This document shows, one piece after another, positions 1 to 47,548 of a stretch of 64,000 nucleotides of DNA. Each line of letters starts with the position of its first letter. The first letter of the stretch is position 1. A program made the translations under genes and the position numbers. This stretch comes from Taiwanofungus camphoratus. Its lineage: Eukaryota; Basidiomycota; Agaricomycetes; Polyporales; Taiwanofungaceae. Location of the stretch: the NCBI GenBank assembly GCA_003999685.1, contig CP021224.1:2604001-2668000 (forward strand), in the 5' to 3' direction. The notes beneath the pieces were generated by a model. It searched no databases and was not told where the DNA came from. It worked only from the letters and a program-made list of their open reading frames with translations.

Positions 1-1463
1 CTCTGCCCCTTCCTCAAGTTTCCGACAAGCGCATACGACACCTACGCTAATGTGAAGCTTGAGATTGACGACGACGTTGCCACGGACGTTGACGTCAAAC
101 CGTTAGAAAAGTTGGTCTTCGAGATTGATAACAATCGAAGTGTCTACGCGAGTTACGAAGCATTCGGGCGAGGAACGACGATCGTGCCGATCCAGGCGAC
201 TGGGGTAGCCAAGGTTATGTTTGGCGAAGACGATCTGGTGGCGAAGATGGCATGGCCTTCGAAGGAGCGAGAAGCAGAAGACAATTTTATCAAGAAAATC
301 AGGCGGAATCTCAAGGTCCATGCACCGCGGTGGCTCGATCATGTAGTCGATCTAAAATGCTCGGTCACACGGAACATGAAGGAAATGAATTTGCCAAGAG
401 TCTACATGACAAAAGTTCTGGACTACCGGGAGCAATTGTTTCGTATGACGGTGATGAAGAAATACGAAGCCCTTGAACAAGTGAACAGTGTTGATGAATT
501 CAAGAAGGTCTTTGTCGACGTTGTGAACGGTATGTTTTCTTTCGCTGTATCATATTGCATCATCGCCGATTCCTATTTAAATTAGCGCACCACTGGGTAT
601 GGGAGACAGCGGAAGCCCTGCATCGCGACATCAGTGCGAACAATATCATGTTCTACAGGAAGAATGGTGATATTATGGGCGTCCTGTGTGACTGGGATCT
701 TGCAATGACCAAACTTCCAGAAAAGGATTACGCAGAAGACGATAGGCAGTCCAATATCTTCAACAAGCCCGATGAGAATGACATCTTCGGATATCCTGCA
801 GTTGTCGATAACAGCGAAGTTGAAGGCCAATCGGGGCAGCAGGTCAAAGTGCCAGCTCAGGATGCGCCCGACATTGTCGAAGAGGAGGATGAAGATGGAC
901 CAGCACCCAGCGACAATGAAGTCCGTGCAACACAGGAGCAATCCCGTAAACGACCTCGGTACCGTACTGGCACAGGTCCTTTCATGGCGCTGGATCTACT
1001 GGCGAAGGGGGATGTACCTCTGCATCGCTATCGTCATGACCTTGAATCATTTTTCTTTGTTCTAGCGTGGTTCTGCGCCGTCTTCGATCCAGACAACCAC
1101 AAGTCCAGGCATCTCTCCGACTGGGAATCCCCCAACTTGTATGCAATCGGCCGGAACAAGAGGGCATTTCTTAGCGCAGAGGAGGATTGGCGGATAGTGT
1201 TCGCTTCTATGCATCCCGACTACGCACCGCTTGCTCGCACATGGGTCCGGTCGCTACGCGTGAAGTTCTTTGACCTTAACGCCCTGTCGCGTCAGATTGA
1301 AGACCTCGCAGAAGATCTGGATACGGCAGTAAAAGAAGGTAACCAGAAGGAGGCGACCTCGCTGGATGCTCAGATAGCTCGAATGAAGGCACAGAAGGAC
1401 GAGATGATGACATATGAAATCTTCATGCAGCGGCTTCGAATTCCGACATCAAGTCCCCGATGA
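1..1463 (+). CDS. FunK1-type fungal protein kinase, copy A (3' part, cut by window edge)
   Basis: Two exons are visible: 1-529 and 586-1463, joined across a 56-bp intron (GTATGT...TTAG), giving about 468 residues with no stop. It is a fungal-specific FunK1 kinase (Pfam Pkinase_fungal family, as I know it). The segment VAKMAWPSKE carries the likely ATP-binding Lys, and the Glu of REAEDNFI is the likely helix-C Glu. The catalytic loop is HRDISANN, and the metal-binding DFG is replaced by DWDLAM, as is usual in this family. An acidic linker with EEEDEDGPAPSD follows, then the conserved GTGPFMALDLL and HRYRHDLESFFFVLAW of the C-lobe and a charged C-terminal helix. The N-terminal exons lie outside the window. 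It is closest to copy B at 50.6 kb. Substrates of FunK1 kinases are unknown. Family assignment is firm; activity is inferred. Confidence 0.88.
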
Positions 1464-2482: not shown

Positions 2483-4415
2483 AGCCTACGCAGAGACGGT
2501 CTGGGCCAATGAGAGACTGGAAGATTGCTGCAAGGGGCAGCACAGAATATAGCACTGCCTCAATGCCTGGCATTGGGTGTTCCCGATCTGAGGACTTGAT
2601 TAGATGCCAATTTTTGATTGTGCGCTATTCCCCGTCAAGCCCATATCAAAGTGTTGTCTTGTCTCATAGGGCTATATTAATACAGTTACGAGTGAATCAT
2701 GCTATTCCATCAGCTCCTTCATGATCTGTGACGACTCGATAATTTGCGGGCGCTCTATTGTCAGCGTCTGTTTACGGTATTGACAGATCAACTATATTGT
2801 GAAAGTATACCCCCATTTTCCCTCAGTACCTCCCCAAAGCCAAGAGCGGTAGCAATCTTGTAGCATGTTGTACGTCTTCCGAGTCTGCTTTCGTGACATT
2901 TGTTCACGCTTTACAGAGTTGCAATCATGTCAGACGATAATAGCTCGCCAGAGTCAAACGCAAAATCGATTCCGTGCCCGCAGAAGCTATTGCATGCTGC
3001 TGCTTGCTCGACAGGCATAGTGTGTCATACCTTACTTGCCGCAATATCAGCGGCTGGGGGATGCATCAACGAGCTATCAAACGGTGGTAGATGGGAGGAT
3101 TTCGAACGATGCATCGGTGGCGAAGGCAGGGAGGACGGCGAGGGGAGACTGCTTTCTGGAACAATGTTCTGGCTGTACCCGAGAGGTCTGTATGGCCCGT
3201 ATCACGACACCAAGGAGGGCGGTGTCCAGTAGCATGGCTTGCTGTTCACGGTAGAACGCGGAGCGCGCGTCTCAGATGTGGTGCAGGCAGCGAAAGGGGC
3301 GATGGACGCAATCGCGCATGTACACGTTGCGGCCGCTCGATGAACAGTGGGTCTGATACATCGGTATGAAATGAGGTGCACAGACCTGCCTATGGTCCGT
3401 CCATGCTCGCGGAAAACCTGAGGCGACAAACAACCGAAACCGCCGTGCATAAGACGTGCTGGGCATCAAGCATCGACTCCTTTCCGTGCGTTGCCTGTAG
3501 CTTATGATGGGACTCGGAGCGACGATGAAGCCCCCATTTGCAACCGGAAACCGCAAGCGCTTGAAACTTCAAAGGTAAGATGGAGCGACCACCCACATAA
3601 CATATGGTTTTCAGAATAGGTTGGAGCGGATGCTCAATGTAGTTCGCGGTTTCTTGGTTGATGTTCTTATGATATATCTGATCACTATGACAATCTTGGG
3701 CATTGAGTCCACAGATCCGGATGGGAAGCGTGGTCATGGCGTCGGGGGAAGAGCGCGGAGTCGGTCAGGTGGCAGTGGGCGCCGACGACGTGCCAGAGCA
3801 CCGATGGAGAGCCTAGTTTACACGAGGTCGAGATGAGGTTTGGATCTGTCATTGCGGGCAGCACGCTCGCTGGCAGGTGTAGCGCAACACCGAGCGTGTA
3901 TCGAGTATGGAAAATTGACTCACCTGCCATGGACCCCGATGCCGAGCACATCTCCACCGATCCTGTACAGCGTACACACGAAGTTTTTCGGGGCACCAGT
4001 GAGCACGATTGGGGGTATGAGAGAAGGCAGGAGAGCCTGTGTGAGGCTGAGTGGTGAATGTGAAGCAGGGGTCTCAAGCGCTAGCAGTGGGCCGTAGAAG
4101 TTCTCGGACACACCCGAGCTGCACGAGCACCGGGATTGGACTTGTAAGTTTGGCACAACTTCTGCCACTAATAAACCGTGCACAGTAATGGATACAGAGC
4201 AAGACAGCAAGTGCAGTACAAGCAGGTGCAGCCCCAGGCACACACCGCCATACCTTTCCCCCCAACCCACCCACACCCGCACCCGGTACCCCCTTGCTCT
4301 CAGCCAGGCACTATCCGAGCTTGCGAGCTCGTGCTCCAACGCAGGCTTGATGTGCGTCGTTCCCTTCTCACTCTTGTTCGTTTCCCGCAATGCAACACAA
4401 CGCTGACCGTGTCCC
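2483..4415. other. Unassigned stretch
   Basis: Many short overlapping frames on both strands with no protein I recognise and no convincing exon chain. 4.2-4.4 kb turns C-rich. No tandem repeat or terminal repeat was spotted. Confidence 0.35.
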
Positions 4416-4418
4416 CAG

Positions 4419-4973
4419 CCCGAAGCCTTCTCCGTGCTCACTGCACGCCTCGCGCAGCACAACATGCGTAGCGCGCTGCCTGCGCTGCCGCTTCTCCTGC
4501 CTTCGATGCCCGCATCGCAGCCCACATCCAGCAGCACCTCACCCGAGCTCACACCCGCACACACTGTGCCCGGCAAGACGTTTATCGACCCTGCAGAGGC
4601 TGCCAACCTCCCTGGCTCTGGCACCCACAGCCACAGTGTCAAGTTCTGCACCGAAATTTGTATGCGTATACGCTCCTGTCCACTTGTTTGCTAAAATGTC
4701 TTATCACACTCCAAGTCACCCTCATCGTGGGCCAGCACCAGCACCAGCACCAGTGCACAGACGAGCCCCAGCCTCAGCGCACCGTCGTTCTCCGCCAGCC
4801 CCAGCATGACCGCCTTGCCAATGCACGCGCAGGGCACCAGCGACGGGCCCTCGCAGACATCGCAGAAGCGTACGGGCTCCGATGTGTTTGTGGGCATGGC
4901 GTTGCCGTTTGCGTCTGTGGTGAGGTGGCCCAAGCGGCTCGCCGTCGTGCCATGTGAGGGGCGCGTTCTCGGT
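4419..4973 (+). pseudogene. GC-rich host-gene fragment, function unknown
   Basis: Two exon-like open blocks stand out from their AT-richer surroundings. Block 4419-4659 follows a good acceptor (GTCCCCAG) and reads like protein, including VPGKTFIDPAEAANLPGSG. Block 4716-4973 is open and Ser/Thr-rich, then VFVGMALPFASVVRWPKR, and ends at a plausible donor (GTATGCAG). The intron between them would be 56 bp, but the phases do not agree for the frame that looks coding in both blocks. Either one boundary is wrong or the fragment has decayed. The opposite strand is also open over part of this stretch. I do not recognise the protein. No start or end is defined. Confidence 0.3.
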
Positions 4974-5301: not shown

Positions 5302-8300
5302 TCATGCAGCATCTTTACTGTCTTTCTTCTTGGAGTCTGGCAATGATATCTCCTTCTTTTCCAGCAGTTCTTGGAGTTGCATAGCTTGTGTCCATTGCAA
5401 ATGGGCATCTAGCTTCCCATTCTGCAATCGCACGATAAGGCTGTCCTTGATTTGTAAGAACCTTGTATATAACTCTTTGGATTGCTGTATAGCAATTCGA
5501 CATAGTACAGTCGCATAGTGCCAAGCACCAATTGCTGTAGAAATGTCGAATGATAGTGTGTGTCGTTCGAAAATGTGAACTACCTAGAAATCAATTTTGT
5601 CAGAAGATGAGTAAGAAAGGAAGAGAAGACGCACTCCGTTTCTGATTCGAGCACTAGACAACGTCGCTTGCGGTCCTTCTGCCAGTACACTGTAGATCGG
5701 ATAGTCGGTGATGCCTATTGCCTCCAAAAATCGCAGAAGTGCCGTGCAATACAACCGATGCTGATTCTCTCCCTGGGTCTCAGAATATGATGCTTTCTTG
5801 TATTCAATGACAATCAGGGGTAGCTCCAAAATTGCAGATTCAGATGAATCTGACTTGACTTTGCAATCAAAGCCTAATCCTTTCAGGGTTTCAGTGAGGA
5901 GAGACACCGGGTCTTTACGCTCCTCGCGGAAACGGTTATGGATAGCACGGGAAGGACAGGTCGTACTAGCGACCATAGCATACGTATGGTTCGTTCCCTT
6001 GGGTGTACTGGCACCTTGCTTGTTGTCAGGTGGGGACAATGAATCAGGCCGAGATTGGGGCGAATGCTGAGATTCATATGGGGTTGCATACGGCGCTAGA
6101 TTAGCAAGGCGGATCGTCTTGAGTAGCTCTTCCGCAACAGCGATAGGGATACGGAGGGTACCAAGGGCGTCACATTTCCCTTGGTGCGGAGCCTGTCCCA
6201 TTCTAGTCAAGAGTTCCCAGCGGCGGCATTGGTCCATCCAGTCGATAGCCCGGTCCCCAACATACTGGCCATCACGAGTTTCCTGCCGGACGGCCGCAAG
6301 TCTCCGCTGTGCTGCTGTAGAAGGCACAACATTAGCTTCTGCCCATTGCACCACTTGCTCATTTTCCTTCACTTGTGCTCTCGTCACAACCTCTGTGAAG
6401 CCCACAGCCTCTAGTTCAGCACTTTCATTGAGGTCAACGAAAATGTTTCGAGGAAACTGGAGCATGCGCTCCAAACTTTGTAATACAGCTTCAGCATGAT
6501 TTACAACATTTTGTTAGCCGCCATATATGCACTCACGATGGAAACGAAAGAGGCTTATCAGGATGAGCTGGCGGAGCTTCCGGAGTCACTTTGGGGGTAC
6601 CAGGGAATAGAGTATACCCTTCGCCCGCTTTACCAGTGAAAAAGTCAAAGAACAACCGATCGTTGTCATGCCGCCATGACACTTCAGCAACACTGCCTGG
6701 ATAGTGGGCCTTGACTTGCGCGTTTGCACACGCCTGGAAGATTGCCGAAAAATTACCAACTAACATAGATTTGACGTCTGAAGGGACGTCAACTAGTTCT
6801 TTTGCTCCTGCTCCCACCTCTTTGGAAAGCAGCCGAACCTGATCATAGAGGTCCTTCCTCAGTGATTCACAACCACGATCAACCCTAGGCATGTCATCCT
6901 GTCTTCCATGAACACGGGATGGACATAACACAGCCGTTCACTCACGACCTCGACCCATTCACGTGGCCACATGAACTCTGTCTTTATCTTGTACTCTTTT
7001 TGCACAACCTGGTCACTAAGAACAGATCTTAGTATTGCCTTTCGATCGAACAGCCAGTTAAATATAAGGATAGCATTGTTGTCTGCAGCTTTTCTGGCAA
7101 AGCTATGAGTTCAAATGTGAGCAATGCTTCACTGAAGATCTAGCGCTTTTACTAACTCAGAGCATGATAGATGTTTAGGTATTTTAAATGAGCCAGCCCT
7201 ATTATATCAATGATCAATCATTTGTAGCGGTGTAGAAAAAGCCACTGTCATGTCTGACCTGCTCCCGCCATCTCCATCTGGTGCAATGATGCTCCTACAA
7301 TGTGTTTGAGGATTAGTCATGTGTTGGAATATGAAACACCAGATCACTTACGGAATAGAGGATTGAGTTTCTGAAGTCGCAGAAGGTGGCGAAGATAGTG
7401 CGTCCAAGGATTTCTTGCGGCTGATTTATGACCATATCAAGCCATGCCTCACATGAAATAAAGGATACGCACGACTTAGATGCCGATGTCGGCGCAGAGG
7501 ATTTGGTAGACTTGGGAGCCATGTTTCCGAATCTGTGAACGAAGTCAAGTATGAGGAAAGAACGTCAAACTGAAGCTTACCCTTCAGCGGCTTTATAGCC
7601 TGATCCCTCGACCCACATCATGATTCTCTCACGACGATCACGGACCAGTACCGCGGTCAGTTTCTCAATACATGCGTCCAGACGCCATTGCAAGACCGAT
7701 CCTTGTCGAATCTCATCTGAAACAGCGCTTGCCGCCTGGCACGCTGCGTTGCGGACTTTGGAAGCACAGTCTGCTAGGCATAGAAGATATCGACAGAGAG
7801 AAAGGGCTGCACATGGATCCGAAAGATCGATGTCGGAGTATTGTTCAATGCACCCTAGATGAACTTGAGGCTACATCATTTCTTCATAAGCAATTTTAGT
7901 CCCGATCTGTGCCAATACTTACAAGGATCCTCCCCGAATCAGATTGCTTGTCGAGCCATCCAAAATAGACACGAACGGAACTGCCAGTTTCGGAAAACGC
8001 GAGCCCGATAAGAGGCTCAGAGACTTGCCACACATGCCTCTGATAGAGCATGCTTGACATGTGCACAGGCAGGCTAGTCTCCTCAGCCATGCACAGAACT
8101 GGCAGTGCGCTCGTCCTCGGCAACGGCTTCGACGTAGAATAGGCCAGAACGTGTGCATCAAGCTCAGCACGGCAGCGCTGATCTTCTTCGGGCTCTTCTT
8201 CAGGCACTTCTACATAAACAGGCCGATTGCACATGGCCATAAACGTGGACAGACCGGGTCCTGCAAAGGAACGTGGCTTGGACGATGAAGTCGAGGAAGT

Positions 8301-9159
8301 TTCTTTCTCGTCACCGTGTTGGCCGTCGGTGCCTTCGCCATTGGGTTTCCCGCCGCCGGAATGTTCAGGCGTTCCGTGGTTGTCTCCGTTAGACTCTCCG
8401 CCACCAGATCCATTGCCATTGGTGCCCGCTGCATGACCATTGGCATTGTTTGCTTCGTGTGCCTCAGGCTCGTCGCGGTCAGGATGCAGACTGCACGATA
8501 CTTCCATACCAACTGAAACCATGAGAGGCACCCTGATATCCATTTGCATGTATTTCAACAGAGGGTTAAACACGCCCGTTCCATGTCGAGGAAGAGCGAC
8601 ACATGCATCCTCGCTGTCGACCAAGGCAATAGCCACCAACAGAGTGAGAACGGATTCGAACATCAAAAGAACAACTTGAAACTCACTCGACCAGATAATG
8701 GTTCGAAGCAGGGCACATGGCGTTACGCACCATGACAGCCAGAAAAGACTCCTTCGAGCTCGACTTGTTGCACAGATAATCCGAGATAATAGCATTCCTC
8801 AAAGAAACGCAATCGCTGAGGGTGGTGTTGAACACGTCACGCAGACGCTGATCTATCTGACTCTCTGGTTCATTTTCGGGAAGGACATTCGCACTCGAAT
8901 CCGGGGCCTGCAGCTCATGTAGTAGTGGTTGTACCCGACGATCGACAGGTGGATATGGTCCCTAGAGACACAAATTCAAACGAAAACATTACTGCAACTG
9001 CACGTCACTTACATTCTTCACCCATGAGGGTAGCCGGAAAGCACTTTGAAGACGTGCGCCACATTCCCTGACGTTAAGCGGCCATGTCTCACCGTCCACG
9101 CTATGGTTGTGATATACAACGTCGTCCTTGAGCAGCTGAACATACGCAGAGTATGTCAT
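5302..9159 (-). CDS. P1: multi-exon protein with PD-(D/E)XK-like nuclease signature, function unknown
   Basis: Proposed exons on the minus strand: 9159-9013, 8961-8687, 8613-7923, 7870-7581, 7532-7352, a doubtful 7294-7259, 7102-6946, 6898-6537, 6475-5635 and 5583-5302. All have GT-AG introns of about 45-75 bp and consistent phases except around the doubtful exon. The paralogue P3 confirms the last four. The N-terminal half holds a Gly/Asn-rich linker (about 8.3-8.5 kb) and a block with LPVHMSSMLYQRHVW. The C-terminal half contains LPLIVIEYKKA, which fits the (D/E)XK core, followed by QHRLY, a match to the QxxxY motif of RecB-like PD-(D/E)XK nucleases, and IFERHTLSFDISTAIGAWHY. I know no named family for it. 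Nuclease fold is inferred from these motifs only. A stop ends it at 5302-5304, and no internal stop is seen in the proposed exons. A LINE lies about 170 bp upstream of the start. Confidence 0.7.
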
Positions 9160-9343: not shown

Positions 9344-9654
9344 TTTTTTTTTTTTTTTTTTTTTTTTAATTCCTCGAGTTTATACTCCATACGACGTAGG
9401 TACATGTAGAGTAATAATGATAGTAAGTGGGCATCCGCGCCCGCATGAGCGACACACCTACAGTTTTCGGTGTCCTCGTTATATGGCGTGGGCATGTAAT
9501 CCAACAAGGCCTGACAGGAAGTGTACAGTCGCCATATGACGCCATACCCGACCCCGACCCGTTTTTCGCGCTCTGTGTGTTTACTCGGCCCGGTAATCCC
9601 GTTCCGTCAGCAAATCACTTAGGGAACTGAGTCTAGCCCTACAGGTTTCAGGCC

Positions 9655-11904
9655 TCAGTTATCGTTTGGATTAATGTGGGGGTCGTCGCGGATGCTAGGT
9701 TCCGCTATCCCCTCATCTATCCAGTTATGGTACATTTCAAACGCCTTTGTTTCGGCATCGTACCACTCACAGAAATCTCGGTATTTTCCACCCAGGGCGG
9801 TGGTCATACCGGGATCTAAATGTCGGTCCGCATGGAACCGTTGCCAGGCCGCTTGTCTTCCGACAGTGTGGCACATAAGACGGGCACGAGTGAATGTTCT
9901 CGTGCACGCAGCTTCAGCTTCAAGCAGAGATTCTGCCAGAATCTCCGCCCAATCAAAAGTGGAGACCATCGGGTTGAGCCGAAGGAACTCCATGATGTCA
10001 TCCGGGGTCCATCCCCTTTGTTCTGGGGGCCCCATCAGAAGCGGATCACGAGGACCCTGTTGGCGCTTCGTCCTGATCCAAAACGGACAGTCGAAAAGCA
10101 CATGTTCCCTGGTTTCCTCCGCTCCGCACAAGCAGAGGTGAGGGCCAGGGATATTGAACCGAGAACGGTATTCACCGCCAGGGAAATGGTTGGTGAGCAC
10201 ACGACATACGCGTGCCACCTCCTTATTGGACTTGCCAGCTGCCTTCAAGACCCACGTGCCCTTGGCCGTAGTCCCGTGCAGCGGTAGGGCGTCCTCGGTT
10301 ACTTTCCATAACTGTCGGCCGCGATAGCTGGGGTTATCGACTAGCGTTCCCCAGCGCTTTTTGACCCTTGCCTTGACACGAGCAAGGGCCATCGATTGTG
10401 AGATGAATTCCGGTTGGGGATCATCCAATGCCTTCTTCGCGAGTTCATCAACGAATTCGTTCTGAAAAATGCCTTTATGGGATGGTACCCACAAAAGGAC
10501 GATGCGTCGGCATTCATCTGCATCGAGGAACGCTCGAACGTGTTGAGAAGCCATGACCGCTGTCATTTGCGACGGTCCGACCTCCAGCTTAAAGATTCGG
10601 TCTAGTGCCGATTGGTTATCGGAACATACCGTAAGGGTGGTGATGTGGTCAGGGACATCACGGACCGCTTCACGCAGCCCATGTGCCAATGCCAGCATCT
10701 CCACATCAAAGCTTTGGACCTTTCCGGCTCCAAACCTTCCATGTGCGACATGATCTTCCCCGTCAATGACGAGCCATGCGCTACCCGATCTTACTATGGG
10801 CGCATTTGTATACGACCCATCAGTAAATAGCATGCGCCCCTCTGGCTGGGCCATCTGGCGCCGGAATTCCGGCCACCAGGTGTACTCCAACCAATCAGCG
10901 AATTCAGGAGAGCTTTTGTTTGGACCTTTTCCGTCCAAAAACACTCGCTCGAAGCGATCTATGTACCGATCCACGACCCGGTCACCGGGCCGCGCCTCCG
11001 GGTGGAGGGGTGCAAAGTCTTCTGATGACTGTCTCCCGATGCGATCTATGAACGTCATGGGAGTAACAGCCTGTTTTTTGCCACGTCGCGAGTTAAGCGG
11101 CCATGGCGCAATGATATTGGTGACATTTGTCGCCCAATAAGGTGGAAGGGCGGCCCTCATTGGGTGCCCTTCGTGGACTCGCCGCGCTCTGAGCGCAGCT
11201 TTTTCCATGTACCGGTCGACCTGGATGCGGATGGGGACCAACCCACCCAACATTTCCGTCGCCCCGATCGGTGTGGTCTTGAAACAGCCGGTGATCCACC
11301 GAGCTGCTCTCGACTGAGCGGTCTGCAATTCTTTTGCAGCCCATTTGAGGCCCTTCCACTGTGGGTTCCACCACAATTGAGCGCCGTATAGCATCAACGG
11401 AACGACGTGTGCTATATAGAGCCGCCGTTTGTTGATAGGATGGAATCCGCGTGCCGAGTTACCCAGCATGCGAAGTGCATTGCACGTGCTGGCCGCCTTA
11501 TTAGCGTAGAACCGCACGTGTGCATGGAAGCTAAGCTTGGGGTCTAAAAAGAACCCAAGATAGCGCATCGTGTCCTTTGCTCGCAAAGTGACATCATGTC
11601 CGTCAGTCTGGATGGTTAGATCCGGGCCAAGGGGTCGGGAAGTCGAATACCCCTTCTAGCGTTTCCAGAAGTGCATCAACTCCAGCTTGTCTCCTTCGAC
11701 GCCTAAACCTAAACGGTTTAGGTCGCCAACTAGATCATGGAAGACATCCGCCAATATGGCGTTGTTCTTCAGGACAAGGGCTTGCGGGCTGTCATCAACA
11801 GCCTTCGGCGAAGCCGCCATGATGAGACCGTCGTCCACATAGAACTGAGTCCCGGTTTGGCCCGGTTGTACCAAATGAACTGGCGCCCACTTGTGTATAA
11901 CCGG
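9655..11904 (-). pseudogene. LINE polyprotein, C-terminal part: RT active site, RNase H, CCHC-like tail
   Basis: This continues the LINE frame from HKWAPVHLV. It contains the RT catalytic box FYVDDG near 11.84 kb and the thumb region. One in-frame TAG lies at 11656-11658, just after LMHFWKR, after which the frame is open to its stop at 9655-9657. RNase H follows with all expected acids: LFTDGSYTN, the Glu of DVEMLALAHGL, SDNQSALDRI and NEFVDELAKKA. A C-terminal CLCGAEETREHVLFDCPFW is the Cys/His tail often seen after RNase H in fungal LINEs. With the insertion and this stop the copy cannot make the whole protein, but decay is minimal. Confidence 0.88.
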
Positions 11905-13669
11905 TGATGAGTCCCGTAGCCTCCTGGGCCCCGAATCGCGATTTTAGGAGCTTTCTGATCCCCCAACCGACCACTCTAAGACTCTCCTACAGCCTACGAC
12001 AGGAGGGATAGGTTCCTATAATATTCCTAACGCCCCCTCTCCTTCCTAAACCCTCCTAACACCCTACGAAGTCTTGCGAAGTCACACGAGGTGCTACGAG
12101 ATTTCGAATGCTAGACGCGAAGTCCCTAACTCCTGCTAAGTCCACTATCGGACACTGCCGGCCCTCCCATACTGTTCCATTGGATCTAGGTCCTATCTAC
12201 AACGTCACTCATCCTGGGCTTAGCTAAGAAGTCTTAGCTAAGTCTCTCCTAGCTCTTGTGATTGCAGCTACCTCCGATAGGCTCCGAAACGGTCTGAAGT
12301 TCCGGAAATTGGACTTAGGAAGCCTTGTGCACCCCCATGGGTCTCGATCCTATGCCATAAGGTCATCCTAGGGCGTACCCATATGACCCTCCACCCAGTT
12401 AGGACACCTCCTGCCCCGATTAGGCCAAGTCCCGCTGCTAAGAACTTCGTGCGCTCTTAGCCCGCTAAGATAGGTGATCACGGTGCATGGCTGCTCTCGG
12501 ATAGTCATCCCGCCCTCGTGAATGAAGTTGGTCACCTTTCTACCGTTCGTAGTTCCCCTGTTTCAGTTCCTAATTAGTTCCTATCCCCCTCGTGTTCACT
12601 TCGGAGTCCATGCGTTTTAGTACACATTTCGGACTCGTAAGGATCACTTCGCGCAAGATTAGTTCACCTCACGCTCCCCTATTTAGTCAGAGGTAGTTTA
12701 CTATGTACGAGAGAGACCCCTCAGTGTACGCTTCTCTTTTTGGAATACCAGTTCCCCTGTAGCTCCGATCTCAGGAAAGCGCCACGAGTACAACCTTAGG
12801 AACGGTCCCAAGGTCCCTAAGTCTCCACCCCAGCTCCGTTTCAGTACCTTTGAACTACGTCTATGCTCGCGATATATCTACGAACTACGTCTACGCTTCC
12901 CGAACTACGCACTACGATCTACGAAGTCGTCGTGACTTCGTGCCCTTCAGCACCTCTTATAGCACCTATCCGGTGGGCCTCCGCCTTAGTTATACCCTTA
13001 GGCTCACGTTGCGTCATCCCTACGTCCTACGAATAACCCTACGACTCCCCCATAGCCTTCATTACAGGCTATAGTACATCTCTCTACGCCCTCGAACTCT
13101 CCGACCCACACCTCGATGTCATCAGACACTTCAGAGCTTCCAGCAACCTCGTTCCCTCATTCCTATTCCAAGTATTAGCTCTCCGAACCATCCGACCTCT
13201 CCTACAAGTCTCCTACGCCAGCCAAACCTCGCCCACCTCGCTCTAACGAACCTCTAAGCCTTACACCCTTTAGCTAACTCTAGCTAAAAGGACTTCGCAG
13301 CAGTCTCGTACCCTCTGCCGCTTAGTAGAAATTATAGTCCATTGGCTTATTGCTCCCTAACTCTATACAGCCTACGAAGTCAGCTCGCGCGATTTAGCTA
13401 AAACTTCGAAGGACTTCGCAGAATCTCGAAGGACTTCGCGTATTTCGGAGGGCCTCGCAAGGCCTTAGGGATAGTATAACACTTAGGAACAAGATCCTGT
13501 TGTGCAGGACCCTTGACCCCTTACTCCCCTACTTACAAAAACAAGACATACAGGTTTCCCGGTATCATACAGGTTGTAGCTCCTACCCTCACACCCTCAC
13601 AGTTATCACACTACCCCCAGCCACGTTGCGGAGCACTCCCTAGGTACCAGGGTCCCCTAGGTCGTATCA
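11905..13669 (-). repeat. 1.77-kb LTR-like repeat, copy 1, inserted in the LINE RT region
   Basis: Ends are TGAT...ATCA, the TG...CA form of LTRs. The target CCGG is present on both sides, and removing the repeat plus one CCGG restores the LINE reading frame (IAPVI-HKWAP). No long reading frame is inside; it is full of short repeated words such as TTAGCTAA, ACTACGTCTACG and GACTTCG. A second copy lies at 29822-31428 in the opposite orientation. The likeliest identity is a solo LTR of an LTR retrotransposon with long LTRs. A non-autonomous DNA element is less likely, because the terminal inverted repeats are only a few bases. Confidence 0.7.
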
Positions 13670-16382
13670 CCGGTGCAATGTAAACCCCAGATAGGATCGG
13701 GGATAAGCTCGATCCTTGACCGACTCCGACATCAAAGTCAGATGGATCAGTCAAGGTACCGTTGAACATGAATCGGGTTTTTTGCCCGATCAGGTAATTT
13801 GCCATGAAATTACAGAGCTTGCTATTGAAGCCCTGCTTTCGCATGATTCCTACCAGCGCATCATGATTGATGGACGGGTAGAATTGTGACACATCGAGCA
13901 ATAGCACCGATGGGATAAGGTTGCGCGCCCATGCCTCTTTGACATTGTGCACTAATTGAATGCCAGCATCAGTGGTGCTATGCTGCATAGCCCCACCAAA
14001 CTGGCATGGGTGTAGGATTCCCCACTTCTGGGCATCCCACTGCATTCGTTTGGCAATGATCTTCTCGAACAATTTGCCAAAACAATTCAGCAAGCAGATA
14101 GGCCTGTAGGCCTTCGCTAGCGTATAGTCCGGTTTGTTCGGTTTGGGTAAAACCACCGTAACAGACCGTTTAAAGACGCTTGGATAGACCTCGAAATCGA
14201 GGCAAGCGTTATAGTACGCGCGCAACCATTGTCGCACGTGTATACCGAGATCGGTTTCGATGCCCTCCTCAGAGCGCTCGATCCGATCCACCATCCATTT
14301 AATCCACATCCAGTTCACGTGATCGGGACCGGGTGCGGACGTATTGCTGGTGGATTTGAGATTCTCACGAATCTCAAGCTCACTAATATCCAGTAGAGTC
14401 AATTCCTCCCGTTGAGGAATTTCGTCTACAAACGACAGATCCACCGGCCGTGGGTTGGCAGGTGTGAACTGAGCTTGAAAAGCACGACTGAGCTCAGTCG
14501 CACTTTGAACTGGCGCACCATCAGCTTGTCGCAGCTGAATAGTGGCCTCTTGTCGTCTCGGCTTTGTCCATGCGACAAAGTTCGAGATCGATTGGGGATT
14601 GGATTCATCCATGATCTGATCAAAGTGTGCACGCTTCGCCCGCTTCGTGGCAAGGCGAAGTGTTGCACGTTGTTTATGCCGTTCGGACCGAAGTTCGGCA
14701 GCAATATCATATGCGTCTGCAGTGGCCTGAGCGCCAGGTCCCGACTGATGACGTATGTAGCGATACTGTCCTGACGCCGCACTAAGGCGGTGTTGGGTGT
14801 TCGCCAACTTAGTGGCCGCATGGGAGCATGCAGCATCCCACCACGACTTTGAACGTTTGGATGGTCGTTTTACTGTCGAAAACTCCATCCATAGTCGTTG
14901 GAGGTCTCGCTCTAGGCGATCCCCCATTCTTTCAACGCCTTGGGCGCTGCTGAAATGTGTAGGGTAATCGACGAATAGTTTTGCCGTTGCCGTCACGAAT
15001 TGTTGGGCCGCGTCGCCGGTACGAGGAATCCCCCGCACCGGTTCTGGCTCAACCTCAATCGGCATCTCCCACCGCAGGACCGCGTGGTCGCTGTTGTGAC
15101 GATGTGACATGAGTACATGAAGGTCTTGGCCTTCATAGTACACTGGGTCGATCCACACCAAGTCTATGACTCCAGGCGTGAGAGCGATGTTGTGGGAATG
15201 CCAAGTGACTGGACCGTCCTGGGCGTTCATCAAGACCAGATCGAGTTCGGCCTGGGCCAACTCGATGAGGCGATTGGAATCAGCGTAGTGCGGAGGCCGC
15301 ACCCGAGATTCCGCAGCGCGTGCATCCCACAATGGGTGGCGGAGATTGAAATCCCCGCACATACACGCAATGGGTGGAAGCGCGTGTACACGTGTTTCCA
15401 AATATCGGACAGCATCAAAAGTGGTGCTGTCGTTGTAGACGTTCAGGACATTGAAGTCCTCGGACGAAAGCTTGAGCGCTACCAGAAGGCAATCCTTATG
15501 GGAGACGCTGTGGGTGACAACTTGCGGAGAGGCAGACGCCCACCGCTTGTTGACATAAATTGCGATCCGGGAATCTTTCGATGCCCCGAGGCACTTGAAC
15601 GAGGCATGGGCAGTCGTATTCTCATACGCCTCCCCGTCTCGTGACTTAGCTGAGGCCACATCCTTGATGCGGCCCCAGAATATCTCCTGGACGCAGATAA
15701 TATCGGTGTCCCTATGTCTCTCAAGTAGAATGCTCGTATTCTCCGCAGATTTCTGAACATTCGCACTTATGCATGTGAGTACGGGCCTGGTAGGCTCGTC
15801 TCTCAGATTGTCGCCCTCAGTCACAGGGCTGGGCGTACGGGAGGGGTCCGCTTCCACCACCATGGGAGAATCGGGCCGTTCATTAGGTTGTGAAACCAGC
15901 GGAGTTCCAAACGGTGGGGCCGAAGCACCGTCGGAAGAATCCGGTTTACATACTGACTCACTAAACCCATAAGGGTTTAGTGGTGCTAGGCCCAAACTGG
16001 TGTGCCATGCATTTCCAGCGTGGTCAAGGGGCATGGAGACAGCAAGGCTGTCTTCAGTGCCATTGTATTCATTGCCCCCTCCCTCAGAGGGAGAGGGCCT
16101 TTGCGAATCGTCTAGTGCAATGGCTGTCGATTCTAGGAGAGGACCTCCCGAGAGGGAGGAACTCGAAGTGGATCTCTCCCCATGGTAGGGTGAGATCAAA
16201 GGTGTGTCCAAAGGGCGAGAGCTCGGGTGGTCCGAGTCGGCTTGAGTGCGATGAGCAGGGCAGCCGCCATGCACCGACATCGCACTCGACGAGGTGGGTG
16301 CACTATCAGTCCTAAGACCAACAGCGGCTATAAGGGCACCAGTATGGGGGGAATAGGGAAGGGAGCGATGAGATTTAGACAT
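13670..16382 (-). CDS. LINE polyprotein, N-terminal part: endonuclease and RT fingers/palm
   Basis: I place the start at 16382 (MSKSHRSL), because the longer upstream frame runs past the element's own 5' end into host DNA. Residues 1-200 are Ser/Pro-rich without a recognisable zinc knuckle. Residues about 201-435 are an APE-type endonuclease: SANVQKS, CVQEIFW (catalytic Glu), CGDFNLRHPLWD (Asp/Asn) and SDHAVL. Residues about 740-906 begin the reverse transcriptase: LPKPNKPD, AYRPICLL, LLLDVSQFYPSI (first catalytic Asp) and GVGQGSSLSPILSGVYIAP. The frame is then interrupted by the LTR-like repeat. It continues at 11904, starting with the 4-bp duplicated target. The full frame would be about 1,650 codons. 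Confidence 0.88.
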
Positions 16383-16436
16383 GCCAGACACGGGCGCTAA
16401 ATCGAGATGGTGGTGGTACTGGTTCAAGAAGCGGCG

Positions 16437-16449
16437 GAAGTTCAGACTC
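16437..16449. repeat. Target-site duplication of LINE copy 1, right
   Basis: Exact repeat of the 13-mer at 9331-9343, directly beyond the LINE 5' end. Confidence 0.9.
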
Positions 16450-16950
16450 GCATGCCACCCGAGTCGTCCTCTTCCCCCGTCTAGATTGACCATCACTGAA
16501 AAGATTCCGCGTGTATGTTCTGGTCTTGTTTTTCATTTTCCACAGTCACCCCGAGTCGTCTCGAGTCACCACCCCGAATTTGATCCTCGTTGCTCGCCCA
16601 TGTTGGTATAGCTCCGATCCAAGATAGTTAGTCTCGAAATCGGAAGCTGTCTCTCTCGATGAGGCCTTGAGGTATCTTCGTGCCTGTAAAACTGTACGAT
16701 AGAACTTGTATCTCTTTTCTGATGGAATGGTCGCCTTACTTTTTACTAACGTTATTCATCGCTTGTGAGAGATTTTCGCTGTTTCTGACGATGCACGAAG
16801 TGACTGCACCTGCTTTTGCAAGGTGCGTTGATTCAGAAGGCACGCGACTTGTCTTCTCGCAAACTCACTCCGTAAGTGTCGATTTGGTTTGTGGCAGAAT
16901 GTCTTGTATCCTATTTTGACCGATTTTTTGGTGTGTAAGGAGTTGTGTAA
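16450..16950. other. Former upstream flank of P1, displaced by the LINE
   Basis: By the target-site duplication this sequence once continued directly from 9331, so it holds what was the distal promoter side of P1. I see no gene in it. Confidence 0.45.
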
Positions 16951-16959
16951 ATATCCACC

Positions 16960-17590
16960 ACACGCGGTTTACTTCTTGTACTTAGTGAAAATCAGAGGCA
17001 GCTCCAACACCAATTTCTCTGACAGTGTAGGTCGGACAGATACATTCAAGTTGGACACCTCCGAAGCAAGGCCAGAGACAACGTCCATGTCCCGTGGTGA
17101 GAACTCCTGCCTGTGGTGTATTTCTTGCTGACAAGTATGCTATATTTGTGGCCTTCGACCAATCCCAGCTCCATACTTGGAGGCGGTGTAGTTGTCAAAT
17201 GGTTAGACGAACCCACCGCTACCTTTCCTCTACTCCAACTATGAGTTGAGCATTTTGAAAACCACCTCTCCGCCGCCTGCCCTAATTCTTCCGCAGCTCT
17301 GTTTCAGCCGTGACAATAAATACAAGAAGGACCAAGGATAGCAAACCGTCTCCAGGAATTTTGTGTGGCACGTCCGAGAGGCCACGCAAAGACTGAAGCG
17401 CATAGGTGCTTCCCCCATTGGACGGGCCAGCAAGTCCTCCCGGTTACAGTTAGCTGCCCATGTTGTGGCTCGGTCACTGATGTACGGGACATCACGATGT
17501 TCTATGGTAGAAGCTGCGATATATTGTGCACCTTTCCCAGCCCCAAGGTTCCAAAATATCTTTCCGCAGACTATCATCCCCTGGAAGGCT
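16960..17590 (-). pseudogene. P2: decayed fragment of the P family
   Basis: Two islands match P1 and P3 in the right order on the minus strand. About 17.4-17.5 kb reads ATTWAANCNREDLLARP then MGEAP, compared with ATWRVNCYRENLLTRLGEAP in P3. About 16.98-17.07 kb reads ELPLIFTKYKK, the counterpart of the EYKK core of the putative nuclease domain. The segments between them are no longer open, and neither the N-terminal half nor the C-terminal IFERHT block is found. It lies between P1 and P3 on the same strand, so the three look like an old tandem array. Confidence 0.55.
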
Positions 17591-17699
17591 GTCCATCACT
17601 CCGGTATACTTAAGTTCGATGTCATTATTTTCATAGTCGACAAAGACACTTCTAGGTATGCGAATTAAGCAGTCTAGTCTGTATCGAATCTAGCATTGA

Positions 17700-19092
17700 A
17701 TATACTGAAAGATCTGGCATTACTCACGATGGTGTAAAGGAGTCTTCACATCAGTACCGGAGGAAGTAGCACCCGAACTGTCCCCAGAAGCGCGTTGATT
17801 TTGATACTTATCAACGTCAACAGATAAGCAGCATCTGTCATCTCTTGAATTGATTAAAAGACTCGAAGAAAAGACCACATGACCGTGGCGCCAATCACCT
17901 ATATGGCGTGATTTGGCGCGCGACTGTTAGCATGCCTGCTGCCTCAGGTAACGGGCCTCACTCCGGGAGGGGGGTGTTAGCTGCAGAGTACGTAGGATCA
18001 TCATGTGCGGGCTCTCCGTGTGCGTAGAAGTGCAGATACTCACGGAAAGTCACCAAGGTCGAGACGAAGAACAGAGCACCAAGACATTGCAAAGTCCAGG
18101 AGACGAACGGCAGCGATCACGACCGTCAATAGGGACCGTATACGCTCTTCGAGTTGAGTCGTCCCCTTAGTATTGATGTGAAACAAGGTCGCTTCAGATT
18201 CTTCGTACAGTATGTACACGAGTCATGAGACGTGAGTCTCGGAATCGCGACGCGTTGCAGTCATGCGTGTGTGCGGACGCTCTTACTACCTGATATGTAT
18301 CACCGTCGATCTCCTCGAACAGGAAGAGTACTGTTCCGGGTAAAACCACTTAGTTTTTGACAAGGTAGCTATTGACATAGTTAAAAACATGTTTTACTGA
18401 CCATGTCAAAAATCAGTGAAGGCTGAAATTGAACAACAGCATGACCCTCTGACGGAATGGTATGCGGGATACTGGACTACTTCAAGTGCCCGTTGTTTGC
18501 CCAAACTCGGAAAAAAGTCAGTAAGTTATATGTGCCACTGACCTTCTTTCGTGGTCTGAGAAGGGAATCTCCGCTCTCCTGCTTTGCTCTTTATATATGA
18601 TATATCTCAACAATGTCCGATAGTCTGTTTCCTGGTACATTGAGCCTCTAGAGCCCTGATTCGCCACAATAATGTGTCCTTTCGCTTTCAAAGGCAGTTT
18701 TGCAATCTGGTGAAAAGCACTCGTTTTCAAGGGTCCCTGTTCCGTTCCGTGCGGATGCGGACTAACGGCCACAACGAAACCACTAAACAGAGAGGATGTA
18801 AGTCCTGTAGCACATCCAATTTTATCATAAGAATTTTTGATTCCATTGGAATAATGTTTATCAAATCGCCTGTTAGGTACAGCATTGTCGCTCACTAATC
18901 CTAAGCGAATCAGTAATATCAAGTGGCTTGATGGTATAATGCAAGGAAGGACGTGAAGCTGCTATAAATGAACAGAATAGGTGAGCAACAAGGCCTTTGA
19001 CCAATCCTGCAGTTAGTTAGGTTTGCTTATCATTATATCGTCAAAACTCATGCCCCCATCAGGCCAGAATCACTAGAGTTGGCGCCATCCTT
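17700..19092. other. Intergenic, no gene recognised
   Basis: Only short frames. A GTTTTTGACA...TGTCAAAAATC inverted repeat (about 18354-18415) could be the ends of a tiny palindromic element. A short open block on the minus strand around 18.3 kb (FLFEEIDGDTYQ, followed by a GTAGTA donor) might be a relic exon. Confidence 0.35.
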
Positions 19093-20998
19093 CTATTTCT
19101 CATCGTTTGTCTGGTTTTTCTTCGCCCTCGGTGGCCGTTTGGCGACGTTGCTTGCATCCAAAGTTTCTAATTGATGTTTGATTTTCCAACGCAAGGCTTT
19201 GTCACTGCCCTTCAATCGTTGTATAAGCTCGTCCTTGACCTCAGCAAATTTCGCATAAAGTTCCCTTGACTGCCACACCGCAATCCTACAAAGCACAGTC
19301 GCGTAGTGCCATGCACCTATCGCGGTGGAAATGTCAAAGGATTGTGTATGGCGTTCGAAGATATATACTCTCTGCATGTCGTTGTAAACGAACACTGATG
19401 TATCACGGAGAAAACAAGACATTACCCCTTGCTTTATCCAAGCGCTTGCCACCACAGCTTGCGGACCATCTGTTACAACGCTGAAAAGCGGGTAATTCGT
19501 GATCCCTAGAGACTCCAAGAACCTGGCAGCTGCCGTACAATACATGCGGTGCTGATTCGTGCCTTGAGCAATGGTGGTTGTAGCCTTCTTGTATTCGGCG
19601 AAAATCAAGGGCAGCTCCAGGACAGATTCCGATGGCCCTTTGGGTTGAACGGATACTCCCAAGTCGGACATGCTTGTAGCGAGTTCTGATACTACGTCTG
19701 TTTTCTCCTGTGAAAGGTTTCGGGTTGTTGGAGAAGTACATTTCGTACTCGCGAGTATATCGTAATTGTGAATCCCAACCGGAGACGGTGCCAAGTGATC
19801 TGATGAAGTCACAGTTGGCTTCTGATCTGATGAAGTCACCACTGACTGCCAATCTGATGAAGTTATCACTGACTTCCGATCCGACTGACCACTGGCTGAC
19901 TGTTTCGATTGTTTCTGTTTCTGTTTCTTTGATTCCTCTGTCCTCGATTCTGCATATGACCGTTTAGGAGGATCAAGTGAGGCAAATCGCACGTCACCCA
20001 AGAGCTTGTGCGGGATATCCAAGACTATACGAAGAGTGCCGAGTGCATCACAAACACCCTTGGTAGGCGCCTCCCCTAGACGGGTCAGTAAGTTCTCTCG
20101 GTAACAATTAACTCGCCAGGTGGCCGATTGAGAGTGAACGAAGATCGCATCACGTTCTTCGATGCTATCAGCAGCTTCGAGTTGTTCGTCCGTTACAGCC
20201 CATGACTGCAGAGCTTCTATATCCATGTTCAGCTCCTTAAAATACTTGGGCAACTGACCACTCTCGGCCTTCACGGCAGCATCTTCCTTGTCAACAAACA
20301 TGCTTTTTGGAAGCCAGAGTAAGCGTTCCAACCTGTTCAAAAGATTAGACAACTTATGTATTGAGAAATCGGACAACTCACGACGGATACACAGGCGGTT
20401 CAAACGGTTCCCTCGTGTCGATTCGAGGAGATATATCATCAGACTTGCCACTCGCTGACGCAGACTGGCTTTCAGATTTATTAACGCCAACTGATAGACT
20501 GTATCCATCGTCTCCTGCATTGTTGAAGAAATCGAACAAGAGACGATCATGGTCATGGCGCCACGACGCTTCCGAAACAGTGCCCGAGTGATGTGCTTTG
20601 GTCCGCGAATGCTTGCATGCTTGAAACATGGCAGAAAAGCTCCCAACGAGCAAGGGTAGTATATCATCCGGAACGTCATTAGTGGTGGATGAATCCAGAC
20701 GGCCTTCACGCTGCGCCTGTAAGACTTGCCTATGAAGGTCACCGAGCAAGAATCTGACGCTTCCGTCAACCTTAGGAATATCATCCTGCATTTTATTAAT
20801 AGATAACCGGCCAAATGTTGACAAACACTACTCACAACATGCTTCCATTTGCTTGGCCAGATAAATTCTGTCACCCTTTGATACCTCTGTCGCATTTCTG
20901 GATCATGTAGGACAGACAGGACGACGGCATTCCTATCGAAAAGCCACTCGAATATTCGTGCATTGTCCACACCTTCTGCTCCTCTAATTAGTGCCAAT
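19093..20998 (-). CDS. P3: paralogue of P1, lacking the N-terminal part
   Basis: Exons on the minus strand: about 20998-20836, 20785-20382, 20332-19426 and 19371-19093. Introns of 44-54 bp sit at the same places and phases as in P1. A single uninterrupted frame also runs through most of this interval, but its middle is the wrong frame: paralogue comparison shows the spliced product is the real one. The protein shares IFEWLFDRNAV, SWRHDHDRLLFDFF, GEAPTKGVCDALGTLRI, LPLIFAEYKKA (the (D/E)XK-like core), QHRMY (QxxxY) and IFERHTQSFDISTAIGAWHY with P1. A Ser/Thr/Asp-rich repeat with the words SSD and VTSSD (about 19.79-19.87 kb) takes the place of the P1 linker. The tail is Lys-rich. All P1 exons before this point are absent upstream, so this is an N-terminally truncated gene or one with a new start. 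Downstream it looks open. Confidence 0.65.
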
Positions 20999-29621: not shown

Positions 29622-29821
29622 ATTTTAGTGTTACTGGAGGGTTCACTTTGGTAATGCTGCAAAAGCTTAGAGTGGTGTGCAGCGAAGGGTCGAGGAGAAA
29701 CGGCAGTGACGATGAGCCACATTTCTCAGTAGTCTTCAACTACAAGCTCAATGTAGTCACGATAGTCTTTATGGGCTTCTTGTGGATGTGTGGGTGCAAG
29801 AAGATGTGTAAGGAAAAGCGT

Positions 29822-31428
29822 TGATACGACCTAGGGAACCCTGGTACCTAGAGAGTGCTCCGCAACGTGGCTGTGGGGTAGTGTGATAACTGTGAGGATG
29901 TGAGGGTAGGAGCTACAACCTGTATGATACCGGGAAACCTGTATGTCTTGTTTTTGTAAGTAGGGGAGTAAGTGGTCAAGGGTCCTGCACAACAGGACCT
30001 TGTTCCTAAGTGCTATACTATCCCTAAGGCCTTGCGAGGCCCTCCAAAGTACACAAAGTTCTTCGAGATTCTGTGAAGTCCTTCGAAGTTTTTAGCTAAA
30101 TCGCACGAGCTGACTTCGTAGGTGCTGCGAAGTCCTTTTAGCTAGAGTTAGCTAAAGGGCATAAGGCTTAGAGGTTTGTTAGAGCAAGGTGGGCGAGGTT
30201 TGGCTAGCGTAGGAGACCTGTAGGACAGGTCGGAGAGTTCGAGGGTGTAGGGAGATGTACTATAGCCTGAAACTAAGGCTATGGGAGAGTCGTAGGGCTA
30301 TTCGTAGGACGTAGGGATGACACAACGTGAGCCTAAGGGTATAACTAAGGCGGAGGCCCACCGGGTAGATGCTATATGAGGTGCCGAAAGGTGTGAAGTC
30401 ACGACGACTTCGTGGATCGTAGTGCGTAGTTCGGGAAGCGTAGACGTGGTTCGTAGATATATCGCGAGCGTAGACGTAGTTCAAAGGTACTGAAACAGAG
30501 CTGGGGTGGAGACTTAGGGACCTTAGAACCGTTCCTAAGGTTGTACTCGCGGCGCTTTCCTGAGATCGGAGCTACAGGGGAACTGGTATTTCAAAGAGAG
30601 AAGCGTGCACTGAGGGGTCTCTGTCTTACATAGCAAACTACCTCTGACTAAATAGGGGAGCGTGAGGTGAACTATTCTTGCACGAAGTGATCCTTACGAG
30701 TCCGAAATGTGTACTAAAGCGCATGGGCTCCGAAGTGAACATGAGGAGGATAGGAACTAAATAGGAACTGAAACAGGGGAACTACGTATGGTAGAAAGGT
30801 GACCAACTTCATTCACAAGGGCGGGATGACTATCCGAGAGCAGCCATGCATCGTGATCACCTATCTTAGTGGGCTAAGAGCGCACAAAGTTCTTAGCAGC
30901 GGGACTTGGCCTAATCGGAGTAGGAGGTGTCCTAACTGGGTGGAGGGCCATATGAATACGCTCTAGGATGACCTTATGGCATAGGATCGAGACCCATGGG
31001 GTGCGCAAGGCTTTCTAAGTCCAACTTCCGGAACTTCAGACCGTTTCGGAGCCTATCGGAGGTAGCTGCAATCACAAGAGCTAGGAGAGACTTAGCTAAG
31101 ACTTCTTAGCTAAGCCCGGGATGAGTGACGTAGTAGCTGGGACCTAGATCCAATAGAACAGTATGGGAGGGCCGGCAGTGTCTGATAGTGGACTTAGCAG
31201 GAGTTAGGGACTTCGCGTCTAGCATTCGAAACCTCGTAGCACCTCGTGTGACTTTGCAAGACTTCGTAGGGTGTTAGGAGGGTTTAGGAAGGAAAGAGGG
31301 CGTTAGGAATATTATAGGGACCTATCCCTCCTGTCGTAGGCTGTAGAAGAGTCTTAGAGTGGTCGGTTGGGGGATTAGAAAGCTCCTAAAATCGCGATTC
31401 GGGGCCCAGGAGGCTACGGGACTCATCA
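29822..31428 (+). repeat. 1.6-kb LTR-like repeat, copy 2
   Basis: Same sequence as 11905-13669 over its whole length but in the opposite orientation, starting TGATACGACCTAGGG and ending GGGACTCATCA. It is about 160 bp shorter, so indels separate the copies. Flanks are GCGT on the left and CCGT on the right, a 4-bp duplication with one mismatch. It abuts the coding part of a hAT transposase on its right, whose upstream part is not found on its left. Confidence 0.7.
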
Positions 31429-31429
31429 C

Positions 31430-42846: not shown

Positions 42847-43049
42847 TTAGGACAAGATTCCCTACAAACTCTATCTCAGGATAGCGAATTAGAACGCGAA
42901 CAAGCGGAAGAAACCGGACCCTCACCAACGTCCCCATAGGAAGGGTTGGGTAAGACCAGTGTCCCCATTGGAAGGGACTGGCAGGAGGATCACTTGACTA
43001 CAAGTGCGTACCATCAGTGTTGAGTTGAAGGATAAGAAACACCGGAAAG

Positions 43050-47430: not shown

Positions 47431-47548
47431 AGGCCCCAGGTCAACGCCCGCTACACCCGGATCTGCAGAGCTGCATACAGCCGACATTCAGCAGAGGCAC
47501 GGCACTACGATGTCCACTCATACCGACCCCTGACAGCTATCCGTCTAC

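What the first reader, a model, noticed from the sequence alone, without database searches (positions are those of the whole stretch)
5302..9159. Undescribed multi-exon family with (D/E)XK and QxxxY motifs
P1, P2 and P3 share a C-terminal domain with ELPLI-x(2)-EYKK followed by QHR(L/M)Y, the pattern of RecB-like PD-(D/E)XK nucleases, and a highly conserved IFERHT-x-SFDISTAIGAWHY tail. I know no named family with this layout. An upstream domain and a variable low-complexity linker make up the rest. Conserved intron positions between P1 and P3 show it is a real gene family.
Basis: partly seen in the sequence, partly recalled or inferred. Interest (0 to 1): 0.75.

Follow-up and report, generated by a model that had tools for sequence, protein, structure and literature searches.

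The report
Fungal nuclease-like gene family, mostly decayed
A small, clustered fungal gene family carries a strongly conserved domain that resembles the DNA-cutting domain of bacterial type I restriction enzymes; it is real and unnamed in the libraries searched, but whether it cuts DNA is not shown.

Summary
P1 is a 12-exon, 1083-aa gene on the minus strand, 9159..5302. The genome shows 13 family places (lower bound), all in two stretches (C4:2.16-2.54 Mb; C5:2.609-2.625 Mb). Three P1-type copies are open throughout and two B-type copies probably so; 8 of 13 are broken, cut or partial. Window P3 lacks its 5' half; window P2 is a further remnant with KYKK and a stop.

The C-terminal core is strongly constrained (dN/dS 0.08-0.12). 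Alone it matches Pfam HSDR_N, the PD-(D/E)XK domain of type I restriction enzymes, below the curated cut-off (E 0.0025-0.26 in 4 of 4 fragments, two nearly identical; other fragments gave nothing), with ExK in register. A profile comparison beats 200 of 200 column shuffles.

Against an active enzyme: the first acidic residue is not conserved between subfamilies, and the C-type copy has EHR for EYK. Both AlphaFold models failed (mean pLDDT 39 and 40), so the fold is not shown.

Best reading: an undescribed restriction-endonuclease-fold family, close in kind to the nuclease domain of SPOK spore killers and Crinkler-type proteins, without kinase or ATPase. Function untested.

The parts
5302..9159 (-). 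P1 gene, 12 exons (9159-9013, 8961-8687, 8613-7923, 7870-7581, 7532-7473, 7420-7352, 7294-7259, 7198-7157, 7102-6946, 6898-6537, 6475-5635, 5583-5302), 1083 aa
   Evidence: spliced frame open; same 11 introns in L031 and L032
7532..9159 (-). N-terminal part, residues 1-468, no library match; low-complexity linker inside at about 8495-8250
   Evidence: Pfam: best E 0.19, far under cut-off; PDB 0 matches; conserved in B-type at 44% identity
6175..6456 (-). fast-changing segment, residues 717-810 (limits chosen by eye)
   Evidence: dN/dS 1.17, 1.24, 0.91 among three open P1-type copies; 0.37 in the B-type pair
5419..5829 (-). constrained core, residues 926-1045 (the span includes the last intron)
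   Evidence: dN/dS 0.09, 0.08, 0.12; HSDR_N match
5794..5826 (-). ELPLIVIEYKK, ExK motif, residues 927-937
   Evidence: register with HsdR ExK
5749..5763 (-). QHRLY, QxxxY motif, residues 948-952
   Evidence: aligned with HsdR QLQTY
5836..5856 (-). KSDSSES, the candidate place for the first acidic residue in the P1-type; not kept in register in B- and C-types
5515..5580 (-). VHIFERHTLSFDISTAIGAWHY tail
   Evidence: 36 of the 63 invariant columns of A1 lie from G284 on
19093..20979 (-). P3, B-type copy without its 5' half; ELPLIFAEYKK at 19617-19585, QHRMY at 19554-19540; open 54-base intron at 19425-19372
16972..17595 (-). P2, decayed remnant (TKYKK at 16986-16972, then stop)
9344..16436 (-). 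LINE-type retrotransposon (identified by eye from its frames) inserted between P1 and P2, 13-bp target duplication, empty site in L037

Best explanation
P1 belongs to a small fungal gene family whose C-terminal core has the restriction-endonuclease (PD-(D/E)XK) fold of the HsdR_N kind. The core would bind a nucleic acid and, in copies that keep a full site, cut it: E and K of EYK on the core strand hold the metal, and QxxxY on the next helix contacts the substrate as in HsdR. The large N-terminal part and the fast-changing segment ahead of the core would decide targeting or regulation. The array changes by duplication and decay, as genes of genetic conflict do. Shown: the gene model, the family, the constraint on the core, the gain and decay of copies, the sequence resemblance to HSDR_N in register. 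Inferred: the fold, nuclease activity, the role of each part, the role in conflict (self/non-self, killing, or defence against mobile DNA). P1-type copies are the likeliest to be active; B- and C-types may have lost catalysis.
For: HSDR_N match of 4 of 4 core fragments (two nearly identical), ExK in register. Profile comparison 25.1, 0 of 200 shuffles as high; controls lower: HsdR motor part 13.8, P N-terminal part 16.1, FunK1 13.2. The aligned stretch carries LPLIVIEYKK / NQHRLY / SVLAEGPQA against LPLVVIELKN / NQLQTY / LIISDGLSA. Core dN/dS 0.08-0.12 among P1-types and 0.10 between the B-type copies (0.070/0.671), against 0.91-1.24 just upstream in P1-types (Fisher p 2.8e-4 or less in 3 of 3 pairs; pairs share sequences and the segment was chosen after seeing the alignment). 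SPOK3 domain 2 had HsdR as its best HHpred hit, with ExK and QxxxY aligned, and its lysine is needed for killing (PMC6660238, section 17 and passages). 13 of 13 family places lie in two stretches, 8 of 13 broken, cut or partial.
Against: No library match passes a curated cut-off. Full-length P1 has no PD-(D/E)XK hit; HSDR_N rang in 1 of 6 longer fragments and not in a 117-aa P1 core or the C-type; whole-genome HSDR_N gives no match. Single-sequence scores with my own HsdR profile are weak, -1.3 to 3.4 bits: of 3000 shuffled decoys 7-8 score as high as the P1-types, 25 as L039, 88 as L038, 304 as L040, and the best decoy (8.6) beats every real sequence. B-type alone and C-type alone are reached by 3 and 4 of 100 column shuffles, and the P1-type match rests on 16 columns. 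The first acid is not conserved, and C-type has EHR. AlphaFold mean pLDDT 38.7 and 40.3; no nuclease among the 50 Foldseek rows shown. No expression or activity data.
Confidence: 0.5

Rival explanations
1. The core has the restriction-endonuclease fold but no longer cuts: it binds nucleic acid or another protein, for example as an antidote or a regulator of a nuclease relative.
For: The first acid is missing in register in B- and C-types, and C-type has R for K. The whole core, and most of all the IFERHT-SFDIST tail, is constrained, not only the motif residues.
Against: E and K of ExK and QxxxY are kept in 5 of 5 A- and B-type rows; but the whole core is conserved, so this is weak.
Confidence: 0.35
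2. The motif is convergent and the core is an unrelated alpha/beta fold.
For: Matches are below curated cut-offs and depend on how the fragment is cut; both structure models failed; the P1-type profile match is 16 columns long.
Against: Same register in 4 of 4 fragments, three motifs in the right order, and 0 of 200 column shuffles as high.
Confidence: 0.15
3. Not exclusive of the above: the genes are cargo or parts of a mobile element that moves them by its own termini.
For: Copies lie among retrotransposons and nested repeats.
Against: Six of the seven other P1-type copies were compared with P1 (L035 left out): similarity ends upstream at -25, -43, -115 or -184 and downstream at 3248 to 4878 or beyond from the ATG. 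-184 recurs in three copies, but that is where the LINE interrupts P1's own locus; 3753 recurs in two. No pair of ends is common to all. Introns are kept, so no retrocopying.
Confidence: 0.05

Closest known systems
HsdR N-terminal nuclease domain of type I restriction enzymes (Pfam HSDR_N, PF04313)
   Same: ExK in the same register, QxxxY helix, and a following (D/E)G-A strand
   Different: PD acid not conserved, no SWI2/SNF2 motor found, fungal, multi-exon; matches stay below the curated cut-off
SPOK spore killers of Podospora, domain 2 (PMC6660238; section 17 and passages read)
   Same: fungal, multi-copy with pseudogenes, PD-(D/E)XK domain whose best HHpred hit was HsdR, with QxxxY
   Different: no kinase found here; about 1083 aa with a long N-terminal part of unknown kind. 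No SPOK sequence was compared directly
Crinkler (CRN/CR) proteins with a REase domain (Zhang et al. 2016, known only through PMC5289972, passages read)
   Same: REase domain at the C-terminal side of a longer eukaryotic protein
   Different: Pfam scan of P1 listed no header, P-loop NTPase or kinase (only TrAA12 at E 8.8)
FunK1 (Pfam Pkinase_fungal, PF17667) genes in the same window
   Same: FunK1 copies here carry PDLAFG...FIEIK and QAGKY ahead of the kinase, a REase-like layout by eye
   Different: no profile support for kinship with the P core (hhalign score 10.5, E 0.63)

Membership tests
PD-(D/E)XK superfamily, HsdR_N kind | (D/E)xK on the core strand | tested here: met
   EYK in 5 of 6 rows of A1, EHR in the C-type row; register equals HsdR. 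Met for A- and B-types, not for C-type
PD-(D/E)XK superfamily, HsdR_N kind | first acidic residue (the D of PD) 10 or more residues before ExK | tested here: inconclusive
   P1-type has D at -15 and E at -12 from the E; B-type has only E at -11; C-type none from -8 to -15. HsdR D is at -14
PD-(D/E)XK superfamily, HsdR_N kind | QxxxY helix after ExK | tested here: met
   QHR(L/M)Y in 5 of 5 A- and B-type rows; QLRMN in the C-type row
PD-(D/E)XK superfamily, HsdR_N kind | Pfam HSDR_N score over the curated cut-off of 25.1 bits | tested here: not met
   best 18.2 bits
PD-(D/E)XK superfamily, HsdR_N kind | restriction-endonuclease core fold | tested here: inconclusive
   AlphaFold mean pLDDT 38.7 and 40.3
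SPOK | kinase domain after the nuclease domain | tested here: not met
   no kinase match in full-length P1 at E up to 10
SPOK | spore killing and resistance from one gene | not testable with these tools
   needs crosses
Crinkler (CR) proteins | ubiquitin-like header with LXLFLAK-type motif | not tested
   no header-specific profile was run; the general Pfam scan of P1 listed none
FunK1 (PF17667) | Pfam Pkinase_fungal match | tested here: not met
   no match in P1 or in any of the 6 A1 rows at E up to 10

The most novel reading that the evidence does not exclude
The array is a basidiomycete counterpart of the SPOK block: clustered HsdR-type nuclease genes, some perhaps killers and some non-cutting relatives acting as antidotes, evolving in nuclear conflict, with the segment 717-810 as the recognition part.
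Probability: 0.1. Interest if true: 0.8.

Novelty: new member of a known kind. Interest (0 to 1): 0.42.

Why it matters
Restriction-enzyme-like domains are the killing part of the SPOK spore killers and are frequent in Crinkler-type proteins. A clustered, fast-turning family with an HsdR-like core and no kinase would add a layout in which to ask how such nucleases are kept harmless at home. If it is only a non-cutting relic of the fold, it is still an unnamed family that the protein libraries searched here do not cover.

Tried and rejected
Internal duplication: an N-terminal half as a degenerate copy of the C-terminal core looked possible by eye; hhalign gave probability 0.1 and E 0.45. Not supported.

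Kinship with FunK1: similar layout by eye, no profile support. Left open.

Solved structures by sequence: A1 matched MHC class I at E 0.12 and above over profile positions 42-100, outside the core; A2 matched nothing; A5 matched an agglutinin at E 1.7. Taken as chance.

NCBIfam and PHROGs: single weak matches (best E 0.21 and 0.071); PADLOC none. Relatives in viral contigs and prokaryote genomes by pattern: none confirmed. A first DNA pattern search of the own genome found nothing.

Fold search on the second model: 0 of 536 matches at E 0.001 or better; none of the 50 rows shown is a nuclease; the model is too poor to count.

Link to mating-type genes: STE3 matches lie on C12 and C7, homeobox on C7 and C1, none near the family. 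Link to FunK1: holds on C5 only; FunK1 matches listed on C4 lie at 0.05-0.11 Mb, but the list was cut.

Mobile element with fixed ends: disfavoured.

Full report
What is there. P1 is a real gene: minus strand, 9159 to 5302, 12 exons, 1083 aa. A splice-aware alignment of P1 to related loci of the same genome finds the same 11 introns, at the same residue and phase, in L031 and L032. The B-type copy L039, about 44% identical, keeps 9 of the 11 positions exactly and the other two within 3 residues, with two extra introns that I take as artefacts; L038 keeps 7 exactly, two within 1-2 residues, and two are not found.

Copies. A search of the genome (33.2 Mb, 15 contigs) with the P1 C-terminal half gave 35 matches in 12 places, all on C4:2.16-2.54 Mb or C5:2.609-2.625 Mb. 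A B-type N-terminal query (42 matches) added a decayed N-terminal piece at C4:2190420-2191822: 13 places, 11 on C4 and 2 on C5. The tool states that such counts are lower bounds. P1-type: P1, L031, L032 open; L033 three frame breaks and 3' end lost; L034 similar only to about residue 900; L035 without its 5' half and with frame breaks and stops (the aligner gave eight and four, some in stretches without real similarity); L036 one frame break and two stops; L037 one frame break and one stop. B-type: L038 and L039 open end to end in one scoring scheme; with other gap costs the same program inserted frame breaks and a stop in each, and L038's first donor looks altered, so their integrity is likely but not certain. 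Window P3 is a B-type without its 5' half, 99.6% identical to L039 over 17764-20979. C-type L040 shows only the C-terminal part. P2 is a further remnant outside this count, and its C4 twin lies in the 99%-identical stretch of L037.

How it spread. Similarity between P1 and six other P1-type copies (L035 left out) ends at varying points on either side; -184 upstream recurs in three, where the LINE interrupts P1's own locus, and 3753 downstream in two. Introns are kept. This looks like segmental duplication, not an element with fixed ends. dS between open P1-type copies varies from 0 to 0.54 along the gene, as gene conversion of the 5' half would give; conversion was not tested.

Selection. Among P1, L031 and L032, residues 926-1045 have dN/dS 0.09, 0.08 and 0.12, and residues 717-810 have 1.17, 1.24 and 0.91. 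The contrast is significant in 3 of 3 pairs (Fisher on rounded counts, p 2.5e-5, 1.7e-7, 2.8e-4), but the pairs share sequences and I chose the segment after seeing the alignment. In the B-type pair the core has 0.070/0.671 and the upstream segment 0.546/1.483, so there the segment is at 0.37. A ratio near 1 does not separate relaxed from diversifying selection. Two broken copies, L036 and L037, have 0.47 and 0.48 against P1 over the whole gene.

The nuclease reading. Full-length P1 has no meaningful Pfam match. Among six longer C-terminal fragments HSDR_N rang in one, at E 0.017. Of five fragments only that same L039 piece rang; a 117-aa P1 core and the C-type did not. With cores cut from SES to the tail it rang in 4 of 4: E 0.0025 (L039), 0.005 (P3, nearly the same sequence), 0.028 (L038), 0.26 (P1), all under the cut-off of 25.1 bits. 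In each the E of ELPL is on profile position 136; a fragment of a genuine cyanobacterial HsdR beginning NGLPLVVIELK starts on 135, so its G is on 136. I then built an 82-row HsdR alignment (the seed twice and 80 prokaryote loci). hhalign of the P core against it: score 25.1, E 0.0025, 56 columns, 0 of 200 column shuffles as high, best shuffle 19.9; the printed alignment puts EYK on ELK, QHRLY on QLQTY and EGPQA on DGLSA. Controls: P N-terminal part 16.1, FunK1 13.2, HsdR motor part 13.8. P1-types alone 27.5 (0 of 100 shuffles) but over 16 columns; B alone 18.2 (3 of 100); C alone 17.4 (4 of 100). Single sequences against the HsdR HMM score only -1.3 to 3.4 bits, and the best of 3000 decoys scores 8.6. 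The evidence is consistent and in register, but modest.

The active site. Within A1, E of ExK is kept in 6 of 6 rows, K in 5 of 6 (C-type EHR), Q in 6 of 6, Y in 5 of 6. The first acid is the weak point: P1-types have D at -15 and E at -12 relative to E; B-types have only E at -11; C-type has none between -8 and -15. HsdR has D at -14. P1-type proteins could be active; B- and C-type may not be.

Structure. The order of elements around the motif (strand ending before EYKK, long helix, strands) is what the fold would need, but at this confidence it is not evidence. The fold search gave nothing.

Likely mechanism. [quoted passage not shown] that ExK and the acid hold a metal is textbook knowledge, recalled. 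SPOK3 domain 2, found by the same kind of match to HsdR, loses killing when its lysine is changed (PMC6660238, passages), and SPOK1 toxicity in E. coli and yeast works through DNA damage (PMC9972908, passages). I therefore think the P family most likely acts on nucleic acids, with an array dynamic like that of conflict genes. P1 has no kinase match, so if it is toxic its control must lie elsewhere. This last part is inference.

Setting. The window also holds several FunK1 kinase genes, some with a REase-like stretch before the kinase. The association is not general: the C4 cluster shows no listed FunK1 nearby, though that list was cut. The family is not near the STE3 or homeobox matches.

Literature. 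Eight paper searches listed no paper that by title or abstract describes this family; I read passages of PMC5289972, PMC3482391, PMC6660238 (section 17 in full), PMC9972908 and PMC8955403, and of the rest saw only the listings. The library lacks most subscription journals, and Zhang et al. 2016 was not read. The species was not identified.

Noticed in passing
window 9344-16436: LINE-type retrotransposon (endonuclease, reverse transcriptase and RNase H parts read by eye, A-rich end at 9344) inserted beside P1 with a 13-bp target duplication; the empty site is present once in L037.
   Followed up: yes
window 11901-13672 and 29819-31431: A repeat of about 1.8 kb nested in the LINE; similar copies in L040 (96%), part of it in L032 (97%) and elsewhere in the window.
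   Followed up: no
window 1-1460, 26088-28584, 50823-53311, 57716-59755, 61197-63982: Several FunK1-type fungal kinase genes (four by listed PF17667 matches; the one at 57716-59755 by eye); the genome has 169 exon-level matches, many on C5. Some carry PD...FIEIK before the kinase, one reads AD...FVEVR.
   Followed up: partly
window 16437-20979 and C4 twin (L037, L039): A stretch 99-99.6% identical between C4 and C5, although the neighbouring P1-type genes differ by about 9%: recent transfer or conversion between the two regions.
   Followed up: partly
window 43029-48262: Open frames that look like a Gypsy-type LTR retrotransposon (read by eye).
   Followed up: no
window 32433-33302: Open frame with an end like a hAT-type transposase (read by eye).
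   Followed up: no
G000 C12:457-540 kb: Cluster of STE3 pheromone-receptor matches, on another contig than this family.
   Followed up: no
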